Of a stretch of 64,000 nt of DNA, positions 35,750-63,702 are shown piece after piece. The DNA comes from Hyaloperonospora brassicae (taxonomy: Eukaryota; Oomycota; Peronosporomycetes; Peronosporales; Peronosporaceae). The first letter of the stretch is position 1. Each line of letters starts with the position of its first letter. Position numbers and translations under genes: made by a program. The stretch covers positions 1 to 64,000 of the forward strand of contig CANTFL010001484.1 of NCBI GenBank assembly GCA_947650285.1, in the 5' to 3' direction. The notes beneath the pieces were generated by a model that made no database searches, was not told the origin of the DNA, and saw only the letters and a program-made list of their open reading frames with translations.

Positions 35750-37859
35750 CGTTCCTAGCATTCACTGCAGACCAGACTACGCTTTCGGAGGACGGCGATC
35801 AACTGCAAAAGCAGTTGAGGTGGTGCATTGCTTACAACGACCGAGCCTTCTCTACTTGCATACTCTTTCGTTGACGAGCCACAGCTTTTGCCGCAATCTT
35901 TATTAGCACGTAGCCACTGTAGATCTTTCACTGCTTTGGCGTCATGGCTTATGCTGAACAACGTAACACGAGTCGTAGAGCGCCTTCTTCAACATGCGCG
36001 TCTTGATTTCCGGATCAAACGTCGCCTTCGGAGAGCGTTTGAGTGGCTTTGTTTCACGCATTTGCACCGACAACTATTACATGCTAGATCATGCAAGGCA
36101 CGTGCGCTCTGGCGCTTTTGTGTCGCTATTCAAGCGCAAAGTAGAAGGAAGAGCGCCTTGTAGCGAACGAGCTTTATGCACGAAACATAGTTGCTTGCAA
36201 CGGTATGGTGCAAGTTTGAGCAAAACACCGGCAAAGTTTGGCACTGACACCTTTTGTTCCAGCGACGATCTCAAGGTAACGCTTGTGACCGAACTATGAA
36301 GGGGCAAATGCAGACGATTGGGTGCTGATGGCATACAACCGCTGCGCTATTGGTCTTACTTGCAAACGAAGTGAGACACCAACGGGTGGAACCGGTCAGA
36401 CGTGGGCGCATGCCGTCGCTTCTCCTTCACCTGTCAGAGCTAATTGTGCCTTGCATCACACTCTAGCAACTAGGAACTTGCTCCTCTACAGGGTCGCCAA
36501 ATTCCTCTTTCAGACGTTGGAGGTGATACCTCCTCGTGACTGTGGCATTCTCGCACTAGTAAGCTGAAATGAACGACTCAATCTGCGCAAGAATCGCACA
36601 TCATCGGTACTCAATGCACAGAAAAACATGAGCGCAACATGACGTACCCTTGATCGAAAAAGCGACAGAGAAGGGCTCGAGATGCGCACACGGCAAAATT
36701 GGTGAAGATCCGTCCCGAACAAGTTGTAAACAGTTCAATATGGCCGTACTCGATCACGCGGAGCCCCAATTACTTTGCCTACCAGTAAGAATTGTCGGAG
36801 CAAGTCTTGTACACGGAGACGTCCTCTATCACACCCAGCGACTGCAAAGATTTATTCGTGACGTACACGTAAAACACCTGAAGACGTAAAAAAAGAGCCC
36901 CAATCACGTCAAAGCAAGCCGCCATGACATTGCAGTATGCTACATATGACACTTACGCCATTGACCTTGTGAAGCAATGAGTCTTCCATATACTCGAGGT
37001 AGTCCAAGCTTGCAAAACGCTTGATCAGAGGTGGAGCTTCATTTCTGTGCAAGCAACGAAAACAGAAAGCCAAGCACAACATCTTCTGTATCGTAGTCCG
37101 AAACACACACAACATCTACCAAAATCGCAACAGTCGGTGCTTAAAGACAGCGTTGTGCGCATCAAGGAGTCTGTTTTCCACCACGTCGATCGATATCAGC
37201 AATGGGCTCTCCATATCGGGTAGCGGCTCCTTGAACTTTCGATAATACACATCAGCAGTCTGCAAGAACTTGCATTAGACCCTACGAGGCATCTGCACTT
37301 GACAGCCCCATCCTCAGTGCAAACCTACTCGACAGTATACAGAATCGTGGTATGGCAATAGCCAACGGAGACCGAGTCCCTATCTTCTGGTAACGTGAGC
37401 TCTACACGAGAAGCTCTTTTATCTCCATCTGACGTCCGTACGACTTTGATCCTGTGGTGACAAAGAAAGCATCCAGTTCTGACTTGGCCGGCGCTCCGAA
37501 ACGACGACGTCGTCGTCTTCCTGTCGAGCGCATAAATGGCTCATCACTAGGGAGGAGCCACAGACGTTCTATCCACGAAAGTTGCTGCGTCTTGCAAAAC
37601 AAGGAAGCGCGTCAACGTAAGTCAAGATACTTTTCCAACATCTTTACAACAAGCGACCGACCAGCACCGTCCATGTTCGTACTGTTGACTGCAGTAAGGC
37701 GACGAGACAAATCCCTACCGCAAGCCACAGCGGCTGGAGTGACACTATTTGACTCAGCTTATCCGGCTCTTGTGTCTCCTCGTCTGACGTCGTCGTGTCC
37801 AATGCAAAGTGGTACATCCAACGCACGGCGACCTCCGACGCTACAAAGAATACGATTAT
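35750..37859 (-). pseudogene. 3' part of an interrupted multi-exon host-type gene (unknown function)
   Basis: Protein-like exons with plausible GT-AG introns read right to left. They are a segment with two hydrophobic stretches (37,859 to about 37,684), a basic segment with STGRRRRRRFGAPAKSELDA (about 37,588-37,409), YYRKFKEPLPDMESPLLISI (about 37,259-37,120), APPLIKRFASLDYLEYME (about 37,085-36,960), VFYVYVTNKSLQSLGV (about 36,875-36,770), then TRRYHLQRLKEEFGDP (about 36,545-36,470), FDPEIKTRMLKKALYDS (about 36,020-35,960) and an end segment to 35,755. At least one stop (about 37,117) and one frameshift (about 35,950) cannot be explained by introns. The 5' end is cut at the insertion site of Element 1 and resumes on its other side at 45,836. 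I do not recognise the family; a membrane protein is likely. Confidence 0.55.
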
Positions 37860-38247
37860 TGTAACGGGGCACACCCTTGCGTAACTTAACGCAAGGGATT
37901 TGGGTGCCCCGACAGACGTACACGTGGCAAGCGAGGAAGCGTAGGTAGGGTAAAAGTAGAACTGTTATATTAATAAACTAAGTCTTTTAACTACTGTCTC
38001 TTCGTTTGACTTAACTTAATTTTACTTATATAACTGCATGTATGGTGACGTCTCGTCACCACTCATTGCGCGCGTCTTGCGGCGATTGGTGGGTTGATAT
38101 CATCACGATATCAACCAATGAACAGACCCTTTGGTCGACCCTTCAATATCACCACTTTGGTGATATTGTTTAAAGAATATCCATCTTATATTCTTTATTG
38201 TCACTTTCCTTAAGTGACAATATCATGTAACGGGCTGCCCCGTTACA
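37860..38247 (-). repeat. Element 1 left LTR (3' LTR of the coding strand)
   Basis: 388 bp from TGTAACGGGGCACACCC to GGGCTGCCCCGTTACA. Nearly all of it can be assigned to consecutive hairpins, for example CCCTTGCGT/ACGCAAGGG, GGTGACG/CGTCACC, GGTTGATATC/GATATCAACC, AATATCACCA/TGGTGATATT, AAAGAATAT/ATATTCTTT and ATTGTCACT/AGTGACAAT. Confidence 0.97.
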
Positions 38248-38260
38248 TCACCCCCCCCTT
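38248..38260 (-). other. Element 1 polypurine tract
   Basis: On the minus strand AAGGGGGGGGTGA directly precedes the 3' LTR. It is the expected primer for plus-strand DNA synthesis. Confidence 0.85.
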
Positions 38261-38378
38261 AACTGATAGTCACCGTGTGACTATCGAAATATGGAGGCCA
38301 CCCGTTGGCCACCATTGGGACAGGGAGCACTTGTTTGGTCCGTTCCACTCACTTTCCGCTTGACCTCGCATAGTTAAC

Positions 38379-39983
38379 ATGTCTATGCGAGGTGACTCAA
38401 GACCCACACAGCCTGGTGCTGTGCAAGCCTCTGCGGCAGACGCTTCGTCGTCTGCCGCCCCTTCTTCGCCTGCAGCAACAGGTGCTGCAGGTGCACGCGG
38501 TATCACGCCGCGTGCGCACGATGACCCCGATGTGGAGGTCATCTACTCTGGCGAGTCAGACGTGTCTGACTCGGGCAATGCTCCAGAGGCGTCTCGCTCA
38601 CCGGCGACGCCTCAGTATTCGCCAAGGCCACTGCCGAACGAACGGACTCGTGATTCGCATCACAGTCTGTTCGGCAGTGATGACGATGATCAGGGTGGTG
38701 AGTTCTATTCTTCACCACCGCTGGCTCGTGCGTCTTCGCACGAGCGTGATGATGATGGCGCGAGCCGTCGTCAATCTGGGAGGCGTGGTACCGACAAGGG
38801 TACCACTGTCAATCATGATGAGCTGAAGCCGTGGCGTTTGCCCGAACAACTCATCAATAGCCTGTCTCACGAGACAGGCCAACACCATCGAATACCCTTA
38901 TTCGATGCAACCGAGCTTCACGGCTTGAGTTCCAGCGCGAAGAACTTTCGCGCTGAAGAAGACTTTTATCTCGATGTCTTTCTTAGACATCGATGGTACA
39001 ACAGCAACCAAAAGCGTGACAAAACATCGCTTTTGGCTGCGTGGAACGCGTTCGTCCAAAACGTCAAGAATTTTGGACGAGAGGGGTGGCTCAAGAAACT
39101 TGAGGCAACACGCCTCAGGTTCGAACGGCGAACGCCAACCGGTGCTAGGTACCGGTTGCATTGTTTGTCGAGTGAGGCAGGCATTCCTTGCCTCACATGG
39201 GGAGACCCTTGTGCGAGTTGTGTTGACAACTCGCAGCGTGCACATAGGGATGTGTACTCCCTAAATTCGCCCTGGGGAAGGGCACACATCTCGGCTGAGA
39301 TGCGTGACGCGATTGCAAACTTGCAATCCGTCTACAAGCGCCTTGGGCGCGTGTTTACCGATGGGCCACAGGACTCATCGGATGGGTCTCGTCATACTGG
39401 CGGACGAGACCTTCAACATCCATCAACAGCTGAGAGCGGGGCTCCCAGCTGTTCCAAGAGGGTGGATACCCCCTCCACTGGACGAGGTAGCTCGTCCTTG
39501 ATCCTGAATCGTCACGGTGATTCAAGATACGCTCCACTAGAAAGCGTTGATCACCGTGAGCATCCACCAAAGGATGTGGTGGAGGAGGAAAGACCTCCTC
39601 CAGAACCCCAGGCCCACCATCTCGACCCTTTCGAGATGGATCGCGCAATCGATGAATTGCGCGATGACTTGAAGCACGAGCGCGACCGACGCTACGCTTT
39701 GACCGACACCGTGCGGAAGAACCGCAAGGGTCACGAGGCTGATCGGGCGAGGGATCGCGCCGATTATGCCACGGCGCAGCTTCAGGTCGAGCGGGATGTC
39801 CGCTCCCTTTTCGGCGAGCTGGCGACAGCTCGCGGAGAGATAACTCGGTTGAGTTCCGAGGTATCATATCTGCGCGACCAGACGGATCGTCTGGAGCGCG
39901 AACGCAAGAACTTGATGGATGTTCTTGAACGTGGGGGCTATCTTCATCGGAAGAAGAAGGCTCGTACTGACAGTACGACCTAA
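38379..39983 (+). CDS. Antisense ORF of Element 1 (534 aa, unknown function)
   Basis: An ATG-started frame of 534 codons lies on the strand opposite to gag-pol, between the left LTR and the integrase C-terminus, and overlaps the 3' end of pol (39,355-39,983) tail-to-tail. The protein has a Ser/Ala/Pro- and acid-rich N-terminus (1-150). A compact, probably folded region follows at about 150-330 (EEDFYLDVFLRHRWYNSNQ, SLLAAWNAFVQNVK, LRFERRTPTGARYRLHC), with paired cysteines at CASC. After a disordered linker there is a Glu/Arg-rich coiled coil at about 415-520 and a basic end (HRKKKARTD). I recognise no known domain; it is not Gag, Env or a protease. Transcription would need a promoter in or near the left LTR. 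Element 2 keeps a decayed counterpart in the same place, which argues that it is a real gene of this lineage. Roles such as capsid accessory, silencing interference or antisense control are speculation. Confidence 0.7.
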   Translation: MSMRGDSRPTQPGAVQASAADASSSAAPSSPAATGAAGARGITPRAHDDPDVEVIYSGESDVSDSGNAPEASRSPATPQYSPRPLPNERTRDSHHSLFGSDDDDQGGEFYSSPPLARASSHERDDDGASRRQSGRRGTDKGTTVNHDELKPWRLPEQLINSLSHETGQHHRIPLFDATELHGLSSSAKNFRAEEDFYLDVFLRHRWYNSNQKRDKTSLLAAWNAFVQNVKNFGREGWLKKLEATRLRFERRTPTGARYRLHCLSSEAGIPCLTWGDPCASCVDNSQRAHRDVYSLNSPWGRAHISAEMRDAIANLQSVYKRLGRVFTDGPQDSSDGSRHTGGRDLQHPSTAESGAPSCSKRVDTPSTGRGSSSLILNRHGDSRYAPLESVDHREHPPKDVVEEERPPPEPQAHHLDPFEMDRAIDELRDDLKHERDRRYALTDTVRKNRKGHEADRARDRADYATAQLQVERDVRSLFGELATARGEITRLSSEVSYLRDQTDRLERERKNLMDVLERGGYLHRKKKARTDSTT

Positions 39984-40587
39984 GCCTCCCCACGTAAAAC
40001 GTAGGATGCGTGCGCATCCTACGTGGCAATTCGAGTGTGTATGCATTGCCCTTGCGATGCAACACTCGAAATGGCCCAATGTATTTCGGCAGTAGTTTAC
40101 TACTGCCGACACTAGTGACTGCATGTCCAGGTAGGTTTACCGTTGACAGTAGTACTAGGTCATTAACCTTAAATGAAAGAACATTCGCTCTTCCATTCTT
40201 GTCTGCGTTCCGTTTCTGACGGTCCACCGCATTTGCGATGGAGTCCTGAACGAAACGGACTACCGCTTCTCGAGTCAGCAGGAAGTTCTCTGCTGACTCT
40301 TTGTTTTGTCTAGCAGTGCGCTTCGTGCGCACTGCTAAGAGATTGCTCTCTTCTTCAGCGAGGTTGTCTTCTTCCTCGCTGGCATAATCGTTGGCGATGC
40401 TGAATATACCAGCATCGTCATCATCATCCGAATCAATAATAGCGTCTTCGCTATTATTGAGATGATCTTCTTCATCGATGTCGACTTGATCGACATCGGC
40501 ATCATACGTGACGACGTTTGCGTCGACACGTGATGAGCAAGAGCCAAAACGGTTTTTGCTCGAGCGAGTCCCTCCCCCCTTATCCAA
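39355..40587 (-). CDS. Element 1 pol 3' part: integrase C-terminal domain and chromodomain (frameshifted)
   Basis: This minus-strand frame continues pol after a one-base shift at a run of six G (about 40,573-40,578). It opens with a very acidic stretch (EDAIIDSDDDDDAGIFSI), then RQKRNADKNGRANVLSFKV and LPKYIGPFRVLHRKGNAYTL, the GPF/Y-type module of Ty3 integrases. A Pro/Arg-rich linker is followed at the end by a chromodomain (FLVERILNHRDDSG, YLVQWRGYPPSWNSWEP). Chromodomains steer Ty3 elements to modified histones. The linker and chromodomain lie opposite the antisense ORF. A one-base loss in the G run (or a sequencing error) is the simplest cause of the break. Confidence 0.85.
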   Translation of the reverse strand: MDKGGGTRSSKNRFGSCSSRVDANVVTYDADVDQVDIDEEDHLNNSEDAIIDSDDDDDAGIFSIANDYASEEEDNLAEEESNLLAVRTKRTARQNKESAENFLLTREAVVRFVQDSIANAVDRQKRNADKNGRANVLSFKVNDLVLLSTVNLPGHAVTSVGSSKLLPKYIGPFRVLHRKGNAYTLELPRRMRTHPTFYVGRLRSYCQYEPSSSDEDSPHVQEHPSSSCVRAPDDPSGRADMIPRNSTELSLRELSPARRKGSGHPARPEAAPWHNRRDPSPDQPRDPCGSSARCRSKRSVGRARASSHRAIHRLRDPSRKGRDGGPGVLEEVFPPPPHPLVDAHGDQRFLVERILNHRDDSGSRTSYLVQWRGYPPSWNSWEPRSQLLMDVEGLVRQYDETHPMSPVAHR

Positions 40588-43500
40588 GAGTCACACTCTA
40601 TAAGGGTGGGCAATCGTGGATGGCGTAGGCCATTCACGTAAAACGGTGTGTGCTGTGTTGAAGCATGCACCGAATTATTGATGGCGAATTCCACCATGGG
40701 TAGGAATTCGCTCCAACTCGGAAACGAGTGGACATATCCTCGAAGGATCTCTTCGAGGACACGGTTCGCACGTTCCGTCTGACCATCTGTTTCTGGATGG
40801 TCAGAAGTGGACATCTTCAATCGTGTTCCGAGAGTACGGAACACGGTTTGCCAAAATTCCGCCGTGAACCGAGGGTCACGGTCGGATACGAGTTCACGGG
40901 GTAACCCGTGGAGTCTAAAGACCGTGTCTAGAAAGACACGAGCACAACCTTGAGCCTTGATTGACTCAGGGACAGCAGCAAGATGGACCATCTTGCTGAA
41001 TCGGTCCACAAACACAAGAATACCATTATTCTTGTGAGCGTCTTCGGGAAACCCGAAGACGAAGTCCATTGAAACGGACTGCCGGCACTCTGTCGGAACA
41101 GGCAGAGGCTGCAATGGCGCACGGGATGAAGGACTAGGCTTCACCCGTTGACATACTTCGCAAGCACGGATGTACTTGCGAACAAACTGATACTGGCGGG
41201 GCCAGTAAAAGTCGCGACTTACCGTGAGGTAAGTCTTTTCTCTACCACGATGGCCGCTTGTTGGGGCATCGTGACACTCATACATGATGCGCAATCGCAA
41301 ATCATGATGAGCGGGTACGACGACACGAGGCGTGTCGTCGGCAACAGCTGTATAGTACAGCAATCCGTTGCGTGTACTATACCGATCCGATGAGGATCGG
41401 TACAGAGCCGGTAAATTCCTCATGGATTTACTGGATGGATTCACCAGATGATCCATCAATCGCAGAAGATCCTTATCTTCCGCGTATGCCTTTCGTACGT
41501 CGTCAAGTAAACTTGACGACGAGACACTGAATGACAGTGTCGCAACAGTGGGCTTGTCCTCACTGTTGGATTGCGCGTCCGGCTCGAAATCGGGCCGGCG
41601 CGAAAGAGCATCCGCGACGACATTGAGTCGTCCCGGTTTATACTCCACGGACAAGTTATACTCCGCGAAGAAAGACAGCCACCTCGCCATTCTTTGCAAG
41701 AGGTGAGGGCTGTTTACGGCCGTGCGTAATGACGCATGGTCCGTGTAGACAACAAACGGTCTATCTCCCAGGAGATAGACGCGAAACTTAGCCAGTGCGT
41801 ATTTCATGGCAAGGAGTTCCTTGTCATGCACTGGGTAATTACGCTCAGCTGCTTGCAGCTGACGCGACTGATAACAGATGACGCGCTCCGCGCCATCTGC
41901 ATCGAACTGCATTAACGCACAGCCGATTGCAAAATCGCTGGCGTCACAGACCACATGAAATGGTCTGTCCTGATCTGCAATCGCCAAGATCGGCGATTGC
42001 ATCAAGCTTTGCTTGATACCCTCTAAGGAACGCTGGCACTCAGCGTTCCATGACCACTTGACATTTTTCTTGAGCAAGCAAGAAAGATGAACAGTCATCT
42101 CGGCGTAGTTGCGCGAGTACTTGTGCAAGTACGCCGCAAGACCAAGGAACTTCCTTAGTCCCTTGACATCGACTGGCACTGGCCAGTCGGTGATCGCCTT
42201 GATCTTTTCGGGATCAGGGCGTACGCCGTGTTTCCCCACGATGCACCCAAGAAGTGGTATTTCGCTAGCCGCGAATATACACTTCTTGAGGTTGGCGTAC
42301 AACTTATGCTTGCGCATAAGTTGAAGAACCTGACGAACGTGAGTTCTGTGAACTTCAACGTCCGTCTTCCCGTCCATAGCCCGGCTATGGACGAACACAT
42401 CGTCGAAGTAACTCGGTGCGAAGTCTCGCACCGGTCTCAACAGATTTGTTACACATCTGTTGAATGTTGCAGGGGCATTACTCAGCCCCTGTGGCATCAC
42501 TAGCCACTCCCACAGCATCCCGCTGGGGGTACTCACTGCCGTGAACGGGACGTCCCGTTCACGCATCAGGATCTGATAGAATCCATCCATCAGATCCATG
42601 GACGAAAAGATGGTACTCTTTGACATACCATCTATGATTACGTCCTTCCTCGGTATCGGCGTCTGAGCCGGTACCGTTGCAGCATTCAACTTGTTGAATG
42701 CGTGCACTATCCGCCACCCTCCTGTGGCTTTTCGCACACAGAAGGTCGGAGAGCTGTGAGGGGATGTTGATTCCCTCACATGGCCCGCTGCTAAGCGATC
42801 GGCAAAGAACTTGTCGATCGCTATCACTTGTTCACGAGGCAGTGGCCACTGCTTCATGACACAGTATTTCGAGCCCGGTTTGAGCTCGATCTCGTGTCGA
42901 GTGCCTTTGTCCTTAGGCAACTCGCAAGGTACGGATTCAGGGAACACATCCCTGAATTCGATCAAATCCTTATACAAAGGATTTGCCTGAAGTGACTCCC
43001 AGGATTGGGACGCGTATCGCTCAATCCGAGTCTTCTCATCGAGGACACTTTCGTCCATCGATGAGCTGCTGAGAACCCGTTCGTTCTCAGCAAATACTGT
43101 TGCCGACCGAATGTCGGTCACATACTCGTCCTCTGTGACGAGTACGCAGATCTGCTTGACTTTGCCACTACGCAGATCACGCAAGAACCGTTTCGGTTCT
43201 AGCGTTGGCAACTGAGTTATCTCCGAAGTCAACTTCGGAGGCACAATCAGATCAAGCGTATAAGCGCCTACGCTTGATCCGTCATTAACCAAGACGTTCA
43301 ACGTCTCGGTTTCTTCCTGGGAACTTGCTTCCACAGGTTGCTGAGGGCCTGATCCCTCAGCAAGCAACTCTTGAGAAACTCCTTCCTCAAGTACGTGGGG
43401 ACTTATTCCCTCGACGTCTTCCGACTGTGGCTGTGCAACCACAGTCAGGAACCGATCCTCTACGGTCGACTCTCCAGTCGACCTAGGATTTTCATGTTGC

Positions 43501-44269
43501 CCCTTGGGGGAAACAGATTTCTTTCTTCTAAGATGCTGCCCGCTAGGCATGCATCCATGTCCCGGTCCACTCGACTTTTTTGAGTGGTGGACCTTCGGCG
43601 CAGCCTGTACTTCTGTACAGCTGCCGGGAGCTTGCTCCACAGTGTAGTGATCAACTACACTGTGACCTTGTGCAGTCGTGCTAACGACCGTACCGCAAGT
43701 GAGGCCATCGCACTCACTCGCAGAACATCCACACGCTTGTGGACGCTCCAAGATGTTCATCAGATGGCCATCTGATGAACAAGCAGCAGGCATCTTCACG
43801 GATCGATGCTGCCAGCTCACCCTTGGCTCGTACTTTCTGAGCCAAGGTAATCCCAGGATGACATCAAATTTGTCATCCAGATCTAGTACGATGAAATCAT
43901 CATCGTACTGCTCGCCCTCTAACGTGTAGTGGATTCCTACTACACGTTTCTCAACGGTTATCGATGCGCCTGTTGCAAGGCGCACCGTCATCCTTGTGAG
44001 GGGAATGTCGCGCTCAACGAACTTGAGCCTACGACCCTCTAGTGACTGGCGACGAACAAAGTTGTTCGACGCCCCACAGTCTACTAGGGCACGAAGCGAC
44101 AAGTCATTTGTCGCTTCCAACTTCAAGGTGATGAGCGAAACGTCATCACCAGGTGCAGAGACACACAATGATTGTGTATCTGGAGCAACTTTCGTCAAGA
44201 GATTTGCAAATTCTCTTGAGGTTGCTGGATCAGTAGGGCGCTCCGCCCCTACTGACCCCGACCATTTTT
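40335..44269 (-). CDS. pol: Element 1 pol: protease, reverse transcriptase, RNase H, integrase core
   Basis: The frame has no own ATG start; it is open from the slippery site at the end of gag, as expected for a frameshift-made Gag-Pol. In order it shows the aspartic protease (LVDCGASNNF, an unusual DCGA in place of DSGA or DTGA), the reverse transcriptase (LMDGFYQILM, MPQGLSNAPATFN, and YFDD where YVDD or YLDD is usual) and RNase H (VVCDASDFAIGCALM, VHDKELLAMKYAL, YTDHASL). The integrase follows, with an HHCC zinc finger (HRGREKTYL ... CEVCQRVKP) and the catalytic core (MDFVFGFPE, VSDRDPRF, and the Glu in TERANRVLEE). The frame then runs out of sense after about 40,580, where pol shifts frame. 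All catalytic residues up to that point are present. Confidence 0.95.
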
Positions 44270-45403
44270 TGATGGCCCGTCTCGCTGTTGCGGCTTCGCA
44301 ACAGCGCTGGACCCACGCCCATTGCCCTTTCTGGCGAATGGTCGTCCATTTCGCTCAGTACTGTTTGGTACTGGGCGCGGAGCACTACACTCGTATGCGT
44401 AGTGCCCTAACTTCTGACAGCGATTGCACCTCTGCAATCGCTTGTTGCTTGTAGAGCGAGGTCTCTCGCTCTCAACATAACAGAGGTCCATTGGTTCTGG
44501 ACCTCCGATCTCTTGTCGTCTCGGTGGACGGTAAGAGTTTGAGCTAGCATGAGCCTGTCTCATGCTAAAGTCTTCCTGTTCCGCGGCTGATATCGCTTCT
44601 TCAAGCGTATTCAGCTCAAGGCGGAACAGGTGGCTCCTGACGGGCCCTTCTGCGAGCCCTTGCATGAACACCGTAATTAACGTATGTTCATGAACTGGGT
44701 TAGCAGTTATACTACTCGCAAGGAGTCGTATATGTTGTGCGTAATCGTGCACATCACGCTTACCCTGCTTGAGTTTCAGGAGCTCTGAACGAGCCCTGAA
44801 CTCAGCACGTGGTGGCTCAAACATTTGTCTGAGCCGGGACTTGAAGTCATCTAGCGACCTAAACACGTTTGGGTCGCTACTCTCGAGTCCCAGGGACCAA
44901 GTTTTGGCACGCCCTGCCAAGTGGGTCTGAGCAAATGTGAGTTTCATTTGCTCATCTTCGACGCGACGAGCCCTTAGGGCTCTGTCGAGTTCGACAAACC
45001 ATAGTAACAGGGAGTCCTCTGGGACTCCACTGTACTTGGAGATGTCGACTTTCATCACTTCGGGACGACGCGCATGCGCCGTCCCGCCCACAGCAGCATG
45101 GAATTGCTGCTGTCTCAACAGCTCCGTCTGTTGAGCACCGAGTTCTCTCAACTGCTCGGCCTGTTGAGAGCCTTGCTGGTGAAGCAAGGCTACTTTCTCC
45201 CTCTCGAGAGCAAGTTCATTGTGAATGAACTTGGCGATAGCAGCATGTTGTTGGTCTCTGTCTAGAGACTCCAACATGGTGCTGACGACGAGTTCGCCTA
45301 CGGTAGAACTCATTCGCTCTACCGCACCCCATTCGATGTCACTCAAATGGGTAAACCCTTCACGCGTGGCGTGAAAGGTGTCTTCTTCATCCAACATGTT
45401 CAT
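44249..45403 (-). CDS. gag: Element 1 gag
   Basis: An ATG-started 384-codon frame begins 44 bp inside the 5' LTR edge. A Gln/Leu-rich helical region (about 60-110) precedes the Ty3 retrotransposon gag core at about 130-270 (LLLWFVELDRALRARRVEDE, MKLTFAQTHLAGRAKTWSL, SRLRQMFEPP). One zinc knuckle follows, CNRCQKLGHYAYEC (C-x2-C-x4-H-x4-C), with basic flanks. It ends in GRGQ just after the slippery site. Gag would form the particle and package RNA. Confidence 0.95.
   Translation of the reverse strand: MNMLDEEDTFHATREGFTHLSDIEWGAVERMSSTVGELVVSTMLESLDRDQQHAAIAKFIHNELALEREKVALLHQQGSQQAEQLRELGAQQTELLRQQQFHAAVGGTAHARRPEVMKVDISKYSGVPEDSLLLWFVELDRALRARRVEDEQMKLTFAQTHLAGRAKTWSLGLESSDPNVFRSLDDFKSRLRQMFEPPRAEFRARSELLKLKQGKRDVHDYAQHIRLLASSITANPVHEHTLITVFMQGLAEGPVRSHLFRLELNTLEEAISAAEQEDFSMRQAHASSNSYRPPRRQEIGGPEPMDLCYVESERPRSTSNKRLQRCNRCQKLGHYAYECSAPRPVPNSTERNGRPFARKGNGRGSSAVAKPQQRDGPSKNGRGQ
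44264..44270 (-). promoter_or_regulatory. Minus-one ribosomal frameshift site at the gag/pol junction
   Basis: Read on the minus strand in the gag frame, A-AAA-AAT is a canonical X-XXY-YYZ slippery heptamer four codons before the gag TAG stop. The pol frame is the minus-one frame and is open from exactly this point. A hairpin with a 6-bp stem (GTAGGG/CCCTAC) starts about 11 bases downstream. Together these are the standard parts of programmed minus-one frameshifting. Confidence 0.85.
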
Positions 45404-45432
45404 GTTGGATGATGTGGTCCTTGGAAGGACTA

Positions 45433-45445
45433 CAAAGTGCTACCA
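45433..45445 (-). other. Element 1 primer-binding site
   Basis: On the minus strand, two bases after the 5' LTR, TGGTAGCACTTTG begins with TGG, the complement of a tRNA CCA end. The TGGTAGC start fits an initiator-methionine tRNA as used by many Ty3 and Ty1 elements. The exact tRNA is inferred. Confidence 0.7.
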
Positions 45446-45447
45446 GG

Positions 45448-45835
45448 TGTAACGGGGCACACCCTTGCGTAACTTAACGCAAGGGATTTGGGTGCCCCGA
45501 CAGACGTACACGTGGCGAGCGAGGAAGCGTAGGTAGGGTAAAAGTAGAACTGTTATATTAATAAATTAAGTCTTTAAACTACTGTCTCTTCGTTTGACTT
45601 AATTCAATTATACTAATATAACTGCATGTATGGTGACGTCTCGTCACCACTCATTGCGCGCGTCTTGCGGCGATTGGTGGGTTGATATCATCACGATATC
45701 AACCAATGAACAGACCCTTTGGTCGACCCTTCAATATCACCACTTTGGTGATATTGTTTAAAGAATATCCATCTTATATTCTTTATTGTCACTTTCCTTA
45801 AGTGACAATATCATGTAACGGGCTGCCCCGTTACA
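45448..45835 (-). repeat. Element 1 right LTR (5' LTR of the coding strand)
   Basis: 388 bp, the same as the left LTR apart from seven substitutions, four of them clustered in the AT-rich part around 45,600. Transcription of gag-pol would start here on the minus strand. Confidence 0.97.
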
Positions 45836-46089
45836 ATTATCGCCGCCCCTTGTAGCTACTGCATCATCAGTGCACGCTGTGGTTCGATGGTGCAGTTTGC
45901 AGAACCGTCTGCTCTGGTGAGAAAGTGAGGTATATTTAGGTACGTGGACGACCTACTATATCCCGTCACCCGGCAACAAGGTTACCGGGGTGACTGCTAC
46001 TTTATATACTAGGTAGGGCCAGGTCTCGTACAAAAGAACGCATGCGCGTAGCCTCCTGTCGCGAGATGATCGGGTTCCTCGGTTCCAGT
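45836..46089 (-). pseudogene. 5' side of the interrupted host-type gene
   Basis: The minus-strand frame that reaches the left pseudogene exon (hydrophobic IVFFVASEVAVRWMYHF) continues, once Element 1 and one copy of its ATTAT duplication are set aside, into this segment in the same frame. Here it reads ANCTIEPQRALMMQ, then one TAG stop (or an intron acceptor ending in TAG), then LQGAA. Farther upstream the frame is closed by stops before the solo LTR at 46,095. It supports insertion of Element 1 into an exon. Confidence 0.5.
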
Positions 46090-46094
46090 ACGGG

Positions 46095-46486
46095 TGTGAC
46101 GGGGCAGCCCGTTACATGGAATTGTCACTTTAAAGAAACAATGACAATAAAGAATGTTAAGTTGAATATTATTTGAACAATATCACCGATAGTGGTGAAT
46201 TGGTGAAGCGACCAAAGGGTCTGCTCATTAGTTAATATCTTGACGATATCAACCCACCAATCGCCGCAGGACGCGCGCAATGAGTGGTGACGAGACGTCA
46301 CCATACACTCAGTTAGATTAACATAATTAAGTCAGGTTAAACTTAAAGACAGTAACAAAAGACTTAATTATATTAATACAACAGTTTACTTTTCCCTTAT
46401 CTACGCTTCCTCGTTTGCCTCGTGTACGTCTGTCGGGCGCACCAAAACCCTTGCGTAAAGTTCACGCAAGGGTGTGCCCCGTTGCA
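46095..46486 (+). mobile_element. Solo LTR, Element 1 family, with 5-bp target duplication
   Basis: 392 bp from TGTGACGGGGCAGCCCG to GTGCCCCGTTGCA, opposite in orientation to Element 1. Flanked by ACGGG at 46,090-46,094 and 46,487-46,491. It is diverged from the Element 1 LTRs by many substitutions but keeps most hairpin arms. It lies between the host-gene fragment and the LINE, 260 bp from Element 1. Confidence 0.92.
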
Positions 46487-46574
46487 ACGGGGCCCTGTAT
46501 GACATATTGGTCGGCTCGAGAGGTCTCCAACGAATGGTTGACATCAGAATCATGGAAGGTCGTAGCCTCCTGGA

Positions 46575-48588
46575 CTAGATCGGTGTTAGAAGAAGCGTGC
46601 GATTGAACCGAAGCCCCTGTGTCCATAGCGATATTCGCCAGTCTGCAGGGTCGTCCAAGTCAGTGCCTCTCCAAGGTGGGTCAAACCCATGGCAAAGTCG
46701 GCTCCTTTTGAATGTATAAGCCGTACCCCGTCGATTGCGCAGCCACGACATACCCTGGAGCGTGGTGTGGACAAGCCACCGTTGATTAAATCGCCCCGAC
46801 GCCGCAACTTCAGCACGCATCCCGGCTCTCAGGCGATCATCAAGCACCCGCCGGACATCAATTTTGACACTACCGTCGTCATTATAGACGACTGCAGCTC
46901 TCGATGTACCCGATAAGGCACGTCTACAAACCTTCCTGATCGCACCTTGGCGAGAGTGTCGAGCCGCGAAAATTATAATAATGTCGGACACGATTTTCCA
47001 TAGAGGCGCTCAATATCGGGGATGCTTGTCTTCCGTCCAACAAGGCGTGATAAAAGCCGGACCTGACCCGCTCGATACCCACAAATAGACAATAAGTAGT
47101 AAGTCCCTCGAAGAAAGAGTAGATGTCCATTGTCCAACTGCCGTAGCTGCCATAGCCATCAATTCCGTCCGAATACAAGGAACCGCTAGACCCCCCTGCC
47201 GGATCGGTAAGGAAGCTATCTCGGAAGGGACCCTCGACCGGTACCGCTTGCCATCACGGACGCCCCAGACAAAGCCAATAATTAAGATGTGCAGCCTGGT
47301 AACCACGGCGGGAGGAGACCAACAGTGCCGTGCTAAAAATATGATTCTGGAAACAGCGATATCACTGGCGAGCTGCACCCGCTGTTCCACCGTGTGAGTC
47401 TTCTCTCGTGCTAGACAAATTAAAGATTTATAAATTTATTTATAAGGTAAGGGATTGGATGCGCTGGTTCGAGTTATCGGACACCGCAACATGTTGTCTC
47501 ACCAGAACACCAAGATATTGGCAAGATTCGCCGGGGGCCAGCAGAGTGAGACCACAGGTGTTTACAGGTTGCGCTGATCCGCGCGGGTCCAGCTCGATGA
47601 CTATTGATTTTGACCGGTTTGTTCAAAGACCGGACACATGGGCGAAATCATCGAGAATAGCGATAACCAAAAAAATTTGCAGACCGACCGCGAAGGTAGA
47701 CATCAGTATCATCGGCATATCCCGAGACTTTCAGCTTAGTTGTACGCCCTCCAGATGTGATAGGTACACCTTGAATGTCCTCCAGCGCTTGAAGCACCCG
47801 ATAGACGCTTTCGAGGGCGAGAATAAAGAGATGTGGCGCAAGGGGACACTCTTGCCGTATTCCGCAAGTAACGGCACGTCGAATCGAGAAAATCCATTGA
47901 CGAGAAACGGTACGTGGTGTCGCGGTGTAATTTGTGCCACGACGGATACAAAGTGGGGCAAAATCCCAAGCCATGTCAGCGCCGAAAGTAAATATGGACG
48001 TAACAACGTGTCGTACGCCTTTGTAGAATCGAGAAGCAGAACAATTGCTCTATGCAGATCGCTGTACGAGTTTACAGCTTTGCGTACCGTCACGAAAATG
48101 TCAAGAGCTGAATGGATCGATAGCTTCGGAACAAAACCAACTTGAGTCAGCAACACACGATGCGACAGCAATGACCGCACCCAAAAAGAAAGGATCTTGG
48201 TAAATAACTTGTAGTCGCTGTTTAGTAGAGAGATCGGGAGATGATTAAGTGGAAAAGCAGAGGCTGGAAGTTTCTTGAAATTCTGAATATTCGCTTCATC
48301 AAACGTCGCCGGGCTTACGTGCAGCAAGCTGCACGTAAGCCATCTGGTGTAGAATGTCGCGAGAATAGGGAAGAGCGTGTTCGCGTAACCGCGGCAGAAG
48401 GTTTTGTTGATTTCATCCGGTCCAGCGGCTTTACCACGTTTGATCCTCTTCAAAGCCGCACTCACATCGTCGGGAGAAATTTCCGATGTCACAGCAGAGT
48501 TATTAACCCGCTCCGGAGGGGTGGCCCGGGAAAGGAACGCGGCGGTATTTTCAGGACAGGCGAAGGAATGAGTCTGATACGCTTCCAA
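46575..48588 (-). pseudogene. LINE reverse transcriptase and C-terminal region
   Basis: The frame 48,588-47,731 contains LKRIKRGKAAGPDEINKTF, the classic LINE start of the reverse transcriptase (K-x-x-x-GPDG/E), then LISLLNSDYKLFTKIL-type and VLLLDSTKAYDTLLRPYLL, the first catalytic aspartate block (D-x-x-K-AYD). The catalytic YADD block follows in another frame at about 47,700 (VSGYADDTDVYL). Downstream pieces (47,390-46,575) give the thumb and tail (FVWGVRDGKRYRSRVPSEI, RQGGLAVP). Frame changes at about 47,730 and others make it non-functional. Confidence 0.85.
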
Positions 48589-48779: not shown

Positions 48780-50060
48780 TGCCATTAATTCGACAATTTT
48801 TGTCGAATTAATGGGTGTGCTAGGCTGGTCCCAGCTTTCATGATCGTCCTAAGGTGGGATATCAGGGGCAAGCGCCACCAAGAGAGCAGTATCCAATCGG
48901 ACATAGAGACGATGCAGCATCTGACGATAGATTACTGTCAGGCTTTACCGCGCGGATTTGGTTGTCCCTAAAGAACATTACGAAGTCTTATCTTCCAGTC
49001 GTCCCACGAGTCGGCCACGATCCGTGCTGTGGTGTGGTCCGACATCGGAACAGAAAAAATTGCGTCAGCTCGAAGCTAGACCAGCGCAGTGGCCGCATAA
49101 TGGCTTTGTTCGCGGCTGAATGTGCACAACCTGGAACAGTATACACGCGCCTCCTCTTTCGGACACGGACCACATGACGGGACACGCCGATATTGATGAT
49201 GATGCCATTGTGGTCGACAGCAGGACCAGGTACCGACATAGCAACGTCTTAAATCCAATCGGCATGTTGAGAAATCACATACCACCTATTTAGTCGCAAA
49301 CTTGCCAAACCGCCGCCCGGCAGAGTGTAGAAATAAGTGTGAGCCACCGCTAGAAATGCCGGTACAGCCCCCTATTCTTCGGCGATCTTCATGTCACCAT
49401 CAAGAACATCACTGAGCTGCGCTCGACCGAGAAGCTATCGGGACGCCAAGGAATCGTGGCTTCCGGGTGGCGATATAATGGAACGGTCGAGTCGTGGATC
49501 CAAATTACTGTTGAAGTCCCCATCGATTAACATGGGTCAGTCATATTCCTGTAGAATAAGTGGAAGTCTCTCGAACAGCGACTATCGCTTAGTATTGACA
49601 CTTGGTGCATACACGTTGACAACAAGAACTGTTTCTTCAAGGAGAGTAAGCTGAATAGCCATCTAGTGCGGCATCCAATGCGCCTCAGACCACGCCACCT
49701 TTTTTCATGACCGACTAGTAAAGGTTCAATAACATCGCCACTCCACCTTTAGAGCGCTCTGACTCGGTCCACAAACGAGCGTCCACGCTTGCGCACAATA
49801 CCATAGGAGGAGGTATAAAGCTTTTCCATAGTAAACGACTCCTAATAGTGACTCGCGTTACCTGTAGAAGAACCAAATCGATTGTTCCATCAAATTTGCT
49901 CTGTCTAAACTGACTAAACCATGATGAGTAGTGTTCCGGATGCTTGGATAGTCCGCAATATTTTGCTAATGAAGACTGATGGTGATGTCGAGCGGCTGAC
50001 GGGACGCCGTTAACAAAAGTATACGACTACGTTGGAGAATGCTCAGAGGCGGCGCAACCC
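48780..50060 (-). pseudogene. LINE endonuclease region
   Basis: At about 49,660-49,470 the minus strand reads VLVVNVYAPSVNTKR, then LMGDFNSNLDPRLDRSII with a stop between, the diagnostic (V/I)-N-x-YAP and GDFN-x-x-x-x-x-x-DR motifs of AP-type LINE endonucleases. Other catalytic blocks are blurred by stops. It lies just upstream of the reverse transcriptase, as in L1-like elements. Confidence 0.65.
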
Positions 50061-53873: not shown

Positions 53874-55728
53874 GTGGTTTCGAAGCCACCTTTTCTCTCA
53901 GACCATCAAGAAGTGGAGCTACACTTACGGGCGCGGCAGCGTACTTCACAGCCACCAAGCGGCCGTCAGGTGACTTATCCCATCCTTGATAATCAACCTT
54001 CTAGATTTGTGGCCGAGCTACTCGACGGGATGGATACATGGGCGTTGGGCAGGACCATTTCAGTTTATCAATGGGACGCGGCTGTCATTTCGTGTAAAAA
54101 GAGCATAACACGAGTCCGTAAACAAACGCGGCAACGGCGGTATCGGTACAAACAGCGCGTTTAACAGCGCGAAAGGCGATAATTTCTAACTCGAAGTCAG
54201 TGGATCGATTCTAATATGGAAGGAATTCGTCTGGAGTACTTGATTCGAATCGGATAGCGGCCGGAAAGGACCACCGGCCGACTCCGGTGGTCCTTTCGGC
54301 GAATTGCTGACTGGGACCGGGATCAAACGGTGTCTCGGATCGATAACATGCATGCCCCGTATTACTTAAGAAACATGACAGTAGCCACAAAATTTGCTTC
54401 GTAATGGTAACCAATTTTATGAGTTGTTGATCGAACCGAACACGTGTCTGCTTTACCTGATGCTATTCGAGCATTTGTCCGCGTTCCAACTGAGTGTCGG
54501 TTGTTCTCTTTAGATAATTTGGTCTTGCTCGCGCAATGGATCCAAGCAGAGTTCTGCAGGCTGTCGCTGATATCAGAAGACATAAACCTCTGATCCTGAT
54601 ATTCTGAATAACAATTTATATAAAGACACACAGCGCTGATGGCGCCAGCTCTGCTGACGGTGACCAACGAGATTTTGCGAAAAGAACATATGCCGTCGAA
54701 CTTTTTAATGGCTTAGTGATTTCGCTGCGTAAGAAGGGCGATATGTCAGATGCCATCGATTATCGCCTGATATCTGTACTCCATACCAGTTATAATTGTT
54801 TTGAAAAAGTGCTAGCGACGCGCTTGCAGCGAATTCTACCAATTGTTATTGGGGAAGCGCAGCAGGGGTCCGTTCGAGGCAGGCGTATGTACAAGCTCGT
54901 GGTAATGATGCTATCCAATCTTTTATCATCTTCTGAGAACGTAGACCTATATTAGCTAGCTAGAGCCGTGCCATTCTTATAATGGATTTGCTAAAGGCGT
55001 ATGACACAGTGGATCGGAAGTTTCTTGTTGAGGCCCTTCATCAGCTTTACTTCGACGAACAGTTTGTATAGCTCATTCTCCGAATGCAAACCGAGATCAC
55101 TGCACGTTTCATCGTTAATGGGGAACACTTTGCTCCCCTTCCATTACTGACCAGAATCCGCCAAGGTTATTCCTTAGCACCTTTACTATTTTCACTCGTC
55201 GTGGAATTACTCAGGTCAGTTATTCGGCAGGAGCCTAATCTCCACGGGCTATCAGTGCCAGGGAATATCGACGCCATACATTTTTTCTCGGCTTTTGTCG
55301 ATGACTCGAATATTTTTCTCCATCGCGCGGAACAACTGGAGCCAGCCTCCCGTCTAATTAGTCGCTTTTGAGAACTATCAGGTCTCCGTGCACAGTCGAC
55401 AAATGCAAGTTAATATTTCTAAACACGACTATTCTACTACAGCAGTTTCAAGGCGTCTTAGTGCTGCCTCCGCAGGAGACAATTCGATACTTGAGGTAAG
55501 ACGTGGATTCTGAGGCGATAATTCATCGTAATTGGGCACTGCGTCTTCGTCGGGTGCAGCGTCGGCTCTTGACGGCAGCAACGGTAGCGACGAGTGTGCA
55601 ACAACGGGTGGTAGGTTTAAATGTTATGATCCTACCTTCCGTCTTACTTACAGGTGCAGTCTTCGACATCCATCATTGGGCGCAAACGGAGTTAACTCGG
55701 AGGTACGAGCCGTTTCTGTGGAAGCATG
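53874..55728 (+). pseudogene. Second LINE, plus strand, left part
   Basis: The pieces in order are an endonuclease end (LSDHQEVELHLRARQ, 53,874-54,164), then reverse transcriptase segments: ISLRKKGDMSDAIDYRLISV (54,716 on), ATRLQRILPIVIGEAQQGSV, MDLLKAYDTVDRKFLVEAL (about 54,980), RQGYSLAPLLFSLVVELL and FVDDSNIFLHRAEQ (FVDD catalytic block, about 55,295). A C-terminal piece, HHWAQTELTRRYEPFLWK, reaches 55,728. Frameshifts separate them. The frame is cut exactly at the insertion point of Element 2 and resumes at 63,703. Confidence 0.85.
54260..54300. repeat. Strong hairpin (17-bp stem)
   Basis: GCCGGAAAGGACCACCGG (54,260-54,277) pairs with CCGGTGGTCCTTTCGGC (54,284-54,300) over 17 bp with a single bulged G and a 6-base loop. 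It sits between the endonuclease and reverse transcriptase remnants of the plus-strand LINE, so it may be a small later insertion or a structural RNA feature. Confidence 0.9.
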
Positions 55729-60656: not shown

Positions 60657-61682
60657 CTAAACAGTTGCCACCCGATGCCGGAACTGATACATCAAAAATA
60701 CCTTACGCCTCCTAGAGGCCGGGACAATAAGGTCCCGGTAGTTTCTATTGATCTTGACACGCTCTATACAAGAGCACATGTCTTGAACGACATCTGGTGA
60801 AGTTTTACGTAACTCGGACACTTCACCCAGTGGATTTACTCGTACCACTTCACGTACAGCATCCGAGACTATCCCTAAACACTCTGGCTTCTCGCCATCA
60901 ATGTAATTACCGACATTCAGTGAGGTTTCATATCGGCCGCCCTCATTCGGTGGAATTTCACGTGCCACCCCACTCACATCAGAGGAATTACATTCTTGAT
61001 GTCTTGGCCCTAGACCAACCATGCCTGCAGCATGCAGTGACTCATTATCACAACGAGTATCACTCAACGGAGTACGACTCCCTTCACATACGGTGAAAGT
61101 GCTCCGCTCAACTTTCGTGTCATTGACATTGAAGCTTATTAACTCTGACATACCAATGTCCAGCAAATTGGCATCTTCCGTCATTGGCTCGCGCCAATAG
61201 CGCTTTTGTTGCCTAGCAAAGGTGGGTTCATGACTCTCCAAAGCTTCGCTAGGAACATTGCGCATGGCGCTTAATGTCTTAGGTCTCCAATCAATCCATG
61301 GCTCATGGCATTTAAGCCAAGCCATACCCAGGATGAGATCATATCTCGAGCCCAAATCGAGGACAAGACAGCGTTTAATGCTGTCAAAGTACAAAAACTT
61401 CACACCTATGTCCAACGGAACTTTAGACACCGTGACGCGACTACCAGTCGCTAAACGAACGTTGATCGAATCACCTTCATGCGCTTTGATCGCTTCAGCA
61501 TATCGCTGACTTCCCTTAAGGGAACGACGTCGAGCATAATTGCATGATGCTCCGGAGTCGAGTAGGATCGACCAATGCTTCTCAAAGCATTTAACTTTCG
61601 CCTCGGCGACTAACAAGCCAGGCTTGTATCCACACTCTGTACTGGAGGGCACAGAGATCGGTAGGGCTAATCCCTGTTTCAC
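60657..61682 (-). pseudogene. Element 2 protease region
   Basis: The longest open piece of Element 2 (341 codons). The aspartic protease active site ILLDSGASCNYARRRSLKG is intact, with the flap-side block YDLILGMAWLKCHEPWIDW, matching YDVILGLPWL-type motifs in Element 1. The rest is a variable linker to the reverse transcriptase. Its start codon is not meaningful, since pol is made as a fusion. Confidence 0.85.
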
Positions 61683-62831: not shown

Positions 62832-63702
62832 TGTAGCGGAGCTACACAGCTTCTTTAGTCAGAGGAAGACTTAACGCTCTACGAGTAACTTTGGTGTTAC
62901 GAACCCGACTCAAAGAGTCAACAAGCTCAAAGAGCTTACGGTCCCTGTTCCAGGGGGATCAAACGATCAAAAGAATCACAACACAGAGTGCTCAAGATCA
63001 GCTACCCTTACAGGCGTTGCTAGCTATTACTATCATGACGCTTAGTAAGGCACGTGTATTTGTTTGATCAAAATGGGAACTGAATTTTATTCTATTCTTT
63101 TAGCCTAAAAGAACGCCTTAGAACAAAGTAATCAACCTACTCGCTAATGTACTGAATAAAACCTCTCAAAAGATCTCGTAATCCGTGATTGACAGGCATT
63201 AGTCTTCAACAATTGATGCTGTAACGGGGCAGCCCGTTACATGGAATTGTCACTTTAAGGAAAGTGACAATAAAGAATATGAAGTTGAATATTCTTTGAA
63301 CAATATCACCAAAGTGGTGATATTGAAGGGTCGACCAAAGAGTCTGTTCATTGGTTGATATCTTGACGATATCAATCCACCAATCGCCGCAAGACGCGCG
63401 CAATGAGTAGTGACGAGACGTCACCATACACTTAGTTATATAAGTAAAATTAAGTTAAGTCAAACAGAGAGACAGTAGTTAAAAGACTATTATATTAATA
63501 TAACAGTTCTGCTTTTACCTTACCTACGCTTCCTCGCTTGCCACGTGTACGTCTGTCGGGGCACCGAAACCCTTGCATTAAGTTCACGCAAGGGTGTGCC
63601 CCGTTACAGATGCTGTGTTCTAATATCACTTGAAACGGTATCCCATCCCTTGTGTGCACCACACCTATTGTCGACTACCAGTCGACCTGAAACCCCGTTA
63701 CA
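62832..63702 (-). repeat. Element 2 right LTR, split by a solo LTR
   Basis: Same sequence as the left LTR with a modest number of substitutions. It is interrupted at 63,220-63,608 by a solo LTR of the Element 1 family with its GATGC duplication. Confidence 0.92.
63220..63608 (+). mobile_element. Nested solo LTR, Element 1 family
   Basis: 389 bp, TGTAACGGGGCAGCCCG to GTGCCCCGTTACA, flanked by GATGC at 63,215-63,219 and 63,609-63,613. It lies inside the right LTR of Element 2, which itself lies inside a LINE. Most hairpin arms are intact, so it is younger than the solo LTRs at 8.4 and 46.1 kb. Confidence 0.95.

What the first reader, a model, noticed from the sequence alone, without database searches (positions are those of the whole stretch)
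37860..45835. A retrotransposon built from consecutive short hairpins on its whole length
Nearly every 25-40 bp of Element 1 there is a perfect or near-perfect inverted repeat with arms of 6-12 bp and a loop of 0-12 bases. Exact examples: 12-bp arms at 45,387-45,398/45,401-45,412 (loop TT); 11-bp arms at 40,311-40,321/40,327-40,337; 10-bp arms at 40,272-40,281/40,290-40,299; 10-bp arms at 41,039-41,048/41,052-41,061; 9-bp arms at 38,933-38,941/38,947-38,955. They run through both LTRs, gag, pol and the antisense ORF, across coding frames, and I do not see them in the PPR, kinase or methyltransferase genes. This could be selection for a folded RNA genome, or a mutational process (template switching during reverse transcription that perfects quasi-palindromes). 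I know of no described retroelement with this property along its full length.
Basis: partly seen in the sequence, partly recalled or inferred. Interest (0 to 1): 0.9.

Follow-up and report, generated by a model that had tools for sequence, protein, structure and literature searches.

The report
Retrotransposon folded into continuous short hairpins
A jumping gene in a downy-mildew-like organism carries short self-pairing hairpins along almost its whole length, and changes that break them are rare among the copies that spread, so its RNA or DNA seems to be under selection to fold on itself.

Summary
Perfect inverted repeats (arms >=8, loop <=20) run at 12-20 per kb inside the element, against 0-0.8 in shuffles and 0-3 in 55 of the other 56 bins. 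Codon-preserving shuffles give 2.0 for pol where 52 are seen; the PPR, kinase and methyltransferase genes are at chance. Folding energy on the coding strand exceeds codon-shuffled controls by 45-49% (gag, pol) and 37% (plus ORF), host genes -1 to 2%; a comparable whole-genome measure is 15% in SARS-CoV-2 and 23.4% at most in PMC7642675. In 30 copies, private variants hit stems and non-stems about equally, but shared variants are 2-4 times rarer in stems and do not destabilise folding, as private ones do. Hairpin positions are not shared with related families. Arm conversion by template switching found no support, though truly non-coding data are scant. Best reading: a retrotransposon version of genome-scale ordered RNA structure, stronger and more perfectly paired than MS2 and Qbeta. 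RNA versus single-stranded DNA is unresolved; the benefit (shielding from antisense and small RNAs) is inferred.

The parts
37860..45835 (-). LTR retrotransposon (Ty3/gypsy), whole element, hairpins throughout
   Evidence: LTRs, 5-bp target-site duplication, gag and pol domains; hairpin density
37855..37859 (.). target-site duplication ATTAT (left)
45836..45840 (.). target-site duplication ATTAT (right)
37860..38247 (-). 3' LTR of the minus-strand element, 388 bp
   Evidence: 7 of 388 bases differ from the other LTR; 5 hairpins
45448..45835 (-). 5' LTR of the minus-strand element, 388 bp
   Evidence: 6 hairpins
38248..38263 (-). purine-rich tract next to the 3' LTR, probable polypurine tract
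   Evidence: read; function recalled, not tested
44249..45403 (-). gag (Retrotrans_gag, Ty3 capsid; zinc knuckle below its cut-off)
   Evidence: Pfam; 25 hairpins
40335..44198 (-). pol: protease, RT, RNase H, integrase
   Evidence: Pfam; 86 hairpins
39355..40587 (-). continuation of pol in another frame: SH3-like integrase tail and chromodomain
   Evidence: Pfam Chromo 1.2e-13 and SH3_Tf2-1 2.1e-13
38379..39983 (+). antisense (plus-strand) ORF, 534 aa, overlapping the pol tail
   Evidence: ORF; homologues at 40-47% identity over 76-96% of its length (P0002, P0003, P0004, P0007); no Pfam family; 38 hairpins (23 + 15)
45387..45412 (.). 12-bp perfect hairpin containing the gag start codon
38363..38393 (.). 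11-bp perfect hairpin whose loop holds the start codon of the plus ORF
43754..43781 (.). longest perfect stem, 14 bp, loop 0
40311..40337 (.).

Best explanation
This is a young, multi-copy Ty3/gypsy retrotransposon of an oomycete whose whole sequence has been shaped by selection to pair with itself locally. Synonymous codon choice, plus non-coding change, has built about 170 short, mostly perfect hairpins (arms 6-14 bp, loops mostly 2-10). Copies carrying stem-breaking changes contribute less to later copies. What is kept is the amount of folding, not particular structures. This is how genome-scale ordered RNA structure (GORS) behaves in RNA viruses, here in a retroelement and at about twice the highest whole-genome value cited in the one GORS paper that I read. 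Most likely use (inferred): the element's single-stranded RNA, possibly of both polarities because it also has an antisense gene, is kept unavailable for pairing with antisense transcripts and host small RNAs, while each stem stays too short to look like double-stranded RNA. Shown: density, excess folding energy, constraint on stems, non-homologous positions. Inferred: RNA as the folded molecule, and the shielding role.
For: Density and controls. 150-nt windows: mean z -5.40 plus and -5.41 minus; 98% and 99% of 105 windows below -2, host genes near 0. MFED against codon-preserving shuffles, coding strand: gag 48.5%, pol 45.3%, plus ORF 37.4%; PPR 1.4%, kinase -1.3%, methyltransferase 2.0%. Copies: singletons 72 stem/139 outside (28.6 vs 32.2 per kb), shared 15 stem/106 outside (p 9e-6); version with stems from the window copy alone and that copy dropped 65/120 vs 16/101, p 3e-5; loosest stem definition 89/122 vs 29/92, p 8e-4; linked changes collapsed, p 4e-5, 4e-3 and 1.5e-4 for three stem definitions. 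Energy test without stem definitions, pairs of natural sequences differing at one site: singletons +1.24 (plus) and +1.49 (genomic strand) kcal/mol, variants in 4 or more copies -0.07 and -0.24; singletons against all shared, p 3.6e-5 and 2.9e-6. Registers using third positions 48+48 vs 20 for 3-3 pairing. Stem codons not significantly less conserved in protein than other codons in 15 of 16 comparisons. Positions not shared with eight loci at 54-61% aa identity, as in GORS viruses (abstract and passages of PMC7642675). Small RNAs of both polarities along Gypsy elements are reported in Phytophthora infestans (passages of PMC3522703).
Against: Folding is about equal on both strands, and GU pairs of the genomic strand are not clearly favoured: 17 GT vs 10 AC in stems (loosest setting; 5 vs 4 in the strictest); among shared stem variants that break a WC pair, 5 make a G-T on the other strand and 2 a G-U on the genomic strand, against 30 and 20 for singletons. 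The wobble test has no power, since MS2 plus Qbeta give 16 vs 12. With synonymous sites alone the copy test is weak: p 0.07 for the 10- and 15-copy stem definitions, 0.20 and 0.34 for looser ones, 0.08 for the window-only one, 0.012 for the strictest. No compensatory change was seen among shared variants, so classical covariation proof is missing. One protein comparison of 16 (P0045) has stem codons less conserved (p 0.009), another is near it (P0024, p 0.064). Local peaks above 50% are reported inside SARS-CoV-2, so only the whole-length average is beyond the virus values. No RNA, expression or probing data exist here. Related families almost without perfect hairpins are also present in many copies with open frames (one search list).
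Confidence: 0.6

Rival explanations
1. Mutational arm conversion: fold-back template switching, during reverse transcription or replication, copies one arm onto the other, so that quasi-palindromes become and stay perfect without any benefit. Coding regions keep only conversions that the protein tolerates.
For: Stems are mostly Watson-Crick perfect (138 of 161 without mismatch); folding strand-symmetric; positions differ between families; register bias. Perfection, changing positions and register bias are also reported for nematomorph mitochondrial palindromes, where the authors favour conversion (discussion of PMC6649704 read). In coding DNA a forward conversion would often be non-synonymous and be lost, leaving only reversions, so the coding data cannot exclude this model.
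Against: 0 of 15 shared stem variants has a matching partner change; over all pairs the only pair with two Watson-Crick states reached them by different single changes from a mismatch. Only one of the 15 (45412) is truly non-coding, because two others that labelled non-coding lie in the pol-tail frame, so this evidence is thin. 1 of 42 and 1 of 107 clustered changes has a local reverse-complement template. Stem codons show no significant amino-acid cost in 15 of 16 comparisons, whereas template switches in yeast genes gave multi-residue replacements (abstract of PMC8604942). Host genes of the window and a LINE-like element show no excess, so the process would have to be tied to this element's own replication.
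Confidence: 0.22
2. Selection on single-stranded DNA rather than RNA: the first-strand cDNA must fold, for example to limit strand invasion, nucleases or wrong priming.
For: About equal folding of both strands; mostly strict Watson-Crick stems; hairpins also in LTRs and untranslated parts.
Against: No independent evidence; known folded RNA genomes are nearly strand-symmetric too (MS2 z -3.10/-2.73, Qbeta -3.11/-2.89), so symmetry does not point to DNA.
Confidence: 0.13
3. Chance, base composition, codon usage or protein sequence produces the inverted repeats.
For: None found.
Against: Dinucleotide and codon-preserving shuffles.
Confidence: 0.01

Closest known systems
Genome-scale ordered RNA structure (GORS) of positive-strand RNA viruses (PMC7642675: abstract and passages read)
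   Same: Excess folding energy along the whole genome against shuffles; many consecutive short stem-loops; duplexes mostly not longer than 14 consecutive bp; pairings mostly not homologous between relatives; paired sites less variable.
   Different: LTR retrotransposon with a DNA stage; MFED 37-49% against whole-genome values of 15% (SARS-CoV-2), 7.5-10.7% (HCV) and 23.4% (highest cited), though local peaks above 50% occur there; most stems without any mismatch.
RNA phages MS2 and Qbeta (yardstick)
   Same: Folded throughout, almost equally on both strands.
   Different: MFED 27.3% and 30.2% against 48.1%; perfect IRs of >=8 bp 0.84 and 2.40 per kb against 14.17; GU share of predicted pairs 10.5% and 11.9% against 6.1%.
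Coding palindromes of nematomorph mitochondrial genes (PMC6649704: abstract and discussion read)
   Same: Perfect inverted repeats inside functional coding genes, register bias, changing positions.
   Different: There up to 284 bp, scattered, mitochondrial and thought by the authors to be kept by conversion; here at most 14 bp, about 170 along one element, retrotransposon, with evidence of purifying selection.
Oomycete Ty3/gypsy retrotransposons with chromodomain (Chronos group, PMC5348765: passages read)
   Same: Oomycete, Ty3/gypsy, chromodomain at the pol end.
   Different: Chronos is described as carrying an archaeal-type RNase H; no separate RNase H family was seen by Pfam here, without a specific model.

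Membership tests
Genome-scale ordered RNA structure | Folding energy clearly below sequence-order-randomised controls along the whole genome | tested here: met
   98-99% of 105 windows z<-2; MFED 37-49% on the coding strand
Genome-scale ordered RNA structure | Many consecutive, mostly short unbranched stem-loops, no long duplex | tested here: met
   161-174 stems, longest perfect arm 14 bp
Genome-scale ordered RNA structure | Pairings not conserved in position between relatives | tested here: met
   0-1 shared pairs with each of eight loci at 54-61% aa identity; shift-control means 0.6-2.1 (arm>=6)
Genome-scale ordered RNA structure | Paired sites less diverse than unpaired sites | tested here: met
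   weak for synonymous sites alone
Genome-scale ordered RNA structure | The folded molecule is the RNA genome; link with persistence or evasion of host defence | not testable with these tools
   no RNA data; wobble test without power
Template-switch (conversion) palindromes, nematomorph type | Perfect arms without an excess of imperfect ones; register bias | tested here: met
   138 of 161 stems perfect; registers 48, 48, 20
Template-switch (conversion) palindromes, nematomorph type | Arms evolve in concert (paired changes, reverse-complement templates) | tested here: not met
   within copies up to about 10% apart; few truly non-coding sites
Ty3/gypsy LTR retrotransposon | LTRs with TG..CA ends, target-site duplication, gag, pol order PR-RT-RH-IN | tested here: met
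Chronos group | Additional archaeal-type RNase H | tested here: inconclusive
   only RT_RNaseH models found by Pfam; not searched with a specific model

The most novel reading that the evidence does not exclude
A retroelement genome in which selection keeps both strands self-paired along their whole length, as armour against antisense RNA and RNA interference. Pairing itself, not any particular structure, is the selected trait, at a whole-length strength beyond any RNA virus average that I saw cited or measured. Milder forms (coding-strand MFED 12.8-15.6% in four other retroelement loci of the same genome) would make this a general, overlooked layer of transposon evolution.
Probability: 0.35. 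Interest if true: 0.92.

Novelty: new variant of a known kind. Interest (0 to 1): 0.82.

Why it matters
Genome-wide RNA folding has been discussed mainly for RNA viruses (recalled), where its purpose is debated. A mobile element with many natural genomic copies makes it measurable: private variants show the unselected mutation spectrum and shared variants show what selection let through. It also adds a third constraint on transposon coding sequence besides protein and codon use, which matters for dating copies, dN/dS work and small-RNA mapping in oomycete genomes.

Tried and rejected
Rejected: composition or codon artefact. Not supported on present data: arm conversion. Inconclusive: wobble asymmetry as a test of the folded strand; it first looked like evidence against RNA, but MS2 and Qbeta show the same near-equality, so I withdrew it. 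Inconclusive: strand difference in folding; only gag favoured its coding strand (p 0.002 for z, one of four comparisons). Rejected: regular spacing of hairpins. Positional homology with other families: none. Relatives' DNA from other species: two scans of viral contigs gave nothing. In one search two pairs had a double change, each in one copy; I regard this as compatible with chance at 5-10% divergence, without a formal test. Rows dropped: sites with more than two bases or with gaps were left out of the copy counts (9 multi-allelic sites; 6839 gap-free columns used). The first alignment of the copies had mixed orientations and was discarded; it was redone. In one search the strict test kept 186 of 327 variants (sequence pairs differing at one site only); all 327 give the same direction (p 6e-10 or less). 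Of the 36 copies listed, 30 were fetched and used.
Full report
What it is. The stretch 37860-45835 is a Ty3/gypsy LTR retrotransposon on the minus strand. It has 388-bp LTRs (37860-38247 and 45448-45835; 7 of 388 bases differ), a 5-bp target duplication ATTAT on both sides, gag (44249-45403), pol with protease, reverse transcriptase, RNase H and integrase (40335-44198), and a continuation of pol in another frame with an SH3-like tail and a chromodomain (39355-40587). A plus-strand ORF (38379-39983) overlaps that tail. It has no Pfam family but has homologues at 40-47% identity over 76-96% of its length (P0002, P0003, P0004, P0007, of 11 hits), so it is very probably a real antisense gene. Among the 120 pol hits listed (of 2492), the closest by identity is Peronospora effusa at 89%. 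The host is therefore an oomycete near the downy mildews (inference); the genome is 100.56 Mb in 898 contigs. One search scored 36 copies of pol at 98-100% identity, 35 of them without a stop; that number is a lower bound.

How extreme is it. With one script for all, MS2 and Qbeta, classical folded RNA genomes, reach 27.3% and 30.2% against dinucleotide shuffles, the element 48.1%; perfect stems of 8 bp or more are 0.84, 2.40 and 14.17 per kb. Whole-genome values printed for vertebrate RNA viruses are 15% for SARS-CoV-2, 7.5-10.7% for HCV and 23.4% for the highest; local peaks above 50% also occur there (PMC7642675, abstract and passages; their shuffling method is not identical to mine).

Which elements have it. 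All 17 loci of the same family fetched (90.7-98.7% nt identity) have 5.4-14.6 perfect repeats per kb, the lowest in the most diverged copy, L049. Of eight loci at 54-61% aa identity, two have 4.6-5.6 (L036, L045), three 2.8-3.1 (L039, L044, L047) and three 0-0.4 (L037, L040, L050). A distant gypsy element (L038), an unclassified RT element (L042) and a LINE-like element (L043) have 0-0.4. By folding energy the picture is wider: coding-strand MFED is 44.9% in L041 of the element's own family, 12.8% (L036), 15.4% (L037), 14.0% (L040), 15.6% (L042), but 3.2% (L039), 1.8% (L038) and -1.1% (L043). So moderate folding occurs in several retroelement families of this genome, some almost without perfect hairpins, and this family is the extreme of those sampled. 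The positions of hairpins are not shared between families.

Selection or mutation. Thirty copies (the window's and 29 others, 6839 gap-free columns) were compared. Private variants, mostly from after insertion (inference), are about as dense in stems as outside (72 in 2519 stem columns, 139 in 4320 others). Variants shared by two or more copies, which passed through transposition, are 15 in stems and 106 outside (p 9e-6). The result holds when stems come only from the window copy and that copy is left out (65/120 against 16/101, p 3e-5), with the loosest stem definition (89/122 against 29/92, p 8e-4), and when linked changes are merged (p 4e-5, 4e-3, 1.5e-4). Against: for synonymous sites alone it is weak (p 0.012 to 0.34 by definition). 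An independent test needs no stem definition: for pairs of natural sequences differing at one site, private variants cost 1.24 (plus) or 1.49 (genomic strand) kcal/mol on average, variants in four or more copies -0.07 or -0.24; private against all shared, p 3.6e-5 and 2.9e-6. In a more diverged 23-sequence panel of the RT region, which includes six of the 30 copies, shared variants are 29 in stems and 83 outside, singletons 149 and 225.

Template-switch conversion would also keep stems perfect, but should give matched double changes, at least in non-coding parts. None of 15 shared stem variants is matched; over all pairs, the one pair with two Watson-Crick states reached them by different single changes. 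Only one of the 15 lies outside every ORF, since two more that labelled non-coding fall in the pol-tail frame, so this part is thin. Clustered changes with a nearby reverse-complement template are 1 of 42 and 1 of 107. Stem codons are not significantly worse conserved than other codons in 15 of 16 protein comparisons (the sixteenth, P0045, 56.8% against 66.8%, p 0.009; P0024 is near it at p 0.064). Pairing registers favour third positions opposite first or second positions (48 and 48) over third opposite third (20), as expected if synonymous choice builds the stems; the same bias would follow from conversion filtered by the protein. Conversion, in the past or hidden by the protein filter, is therefore not excluded.

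RNA or DNA. Both strands fold about equally. I first read the lack of a G-U preference as evidence against RNA; the control genomes MS2 and Qbeta show the same lack (16 GT, 12 AC; element 17 and 10), so the test decides nothing.

Mechanism proposed. The selected trait is self-pairing of single-stranded nucleic acid, most simply the element's RNA. Facts that fit: in Phytophthora infestans small RNAs of both polarities map along two abundant Gypsy elements (PMC3522703, passages); this element has genes on both strands, so complementary transcripts can meet; stems stay at or below 14 bp, the length above which GORS viruses mostly interrupt their duplexes. That the benefit is shielding from antisense and small RNAs is inference (about one in three). 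Two details may matter for expression: the gag start codon lies inside a perfect 12-bp hairpin (45387-45412), and the start codon of the plus ORF lies in the loop of an 11-bp hairpin (38363-38393).

Comparison with the literature. No paper on hairpins along a whole retroelement was listed, which cover only open-licence PMC text and show listings. The nearest relatives in kind are GORS and the nematomorph palindromes (PMC6649704, abstract and discussion), whose authors favour conversion. Of PMC8794818 and PMC8604942 I saw the outline and abstract only.

Verdict.

Noticed in passing
about 46100-46495 and 63220-63608 (window, opposite orientation): Two solo LTRs of related subfamilies; by eye most arms of the LTR hairpins are kept while loops differ.
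   Followed up: partly
40335-40587: Pol appears to continue in a second frame (chromodomain ORF 39355-40587) with a 253-base overlap near a run of G on the coding strand; possible programmed frameshift. The open frame is 1339 aa in 33 and 1331 aa in 3 of 36 copies, and P0015 is listed with RT and chromodomain in one protein.
   Followed up: partly
39355-39983: Two protein-coding frames on opposite strands overlap here, with hairpins at full density.
   Followed up: partly
37860-38247 versus 45448-45835: All 7 differences between the LTRs fall in the hairpin-free stretch 37898-38042, and by eye the left LTR shares several states with another subfamily (solo63, L033), which may mean recombination rather than age.
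   Followed up: partly
48312-48341, 48782-48814, 54264-54297: Isolated perfect inverted repeats with 14-15 bp arms in or near a decayed RT remnant and elsewhere in the window.
   Followed up: no
L037, L040, L042: Retroelement loci with almost no perfect hairpins still show MFED of 14-16% on the coding strand: moderate folding, presumably by imperfect helices.
   Followed up: partly
30-copy alignment and RT panel, e.g. near window 42093 and 42155: Several shared variants are clusters of 2-5 (one of 10) bases, some in or next to loops; their origin is unclear.
   Followed up: partly
60657-61682 (-): ORF of 341 aa, resembling by eye the protease part of a gypsy polyprotein, no Pfam hit; weak hairpin excess with short arms only (10 vs 3.3 at arm>=6).
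   Followed up: no
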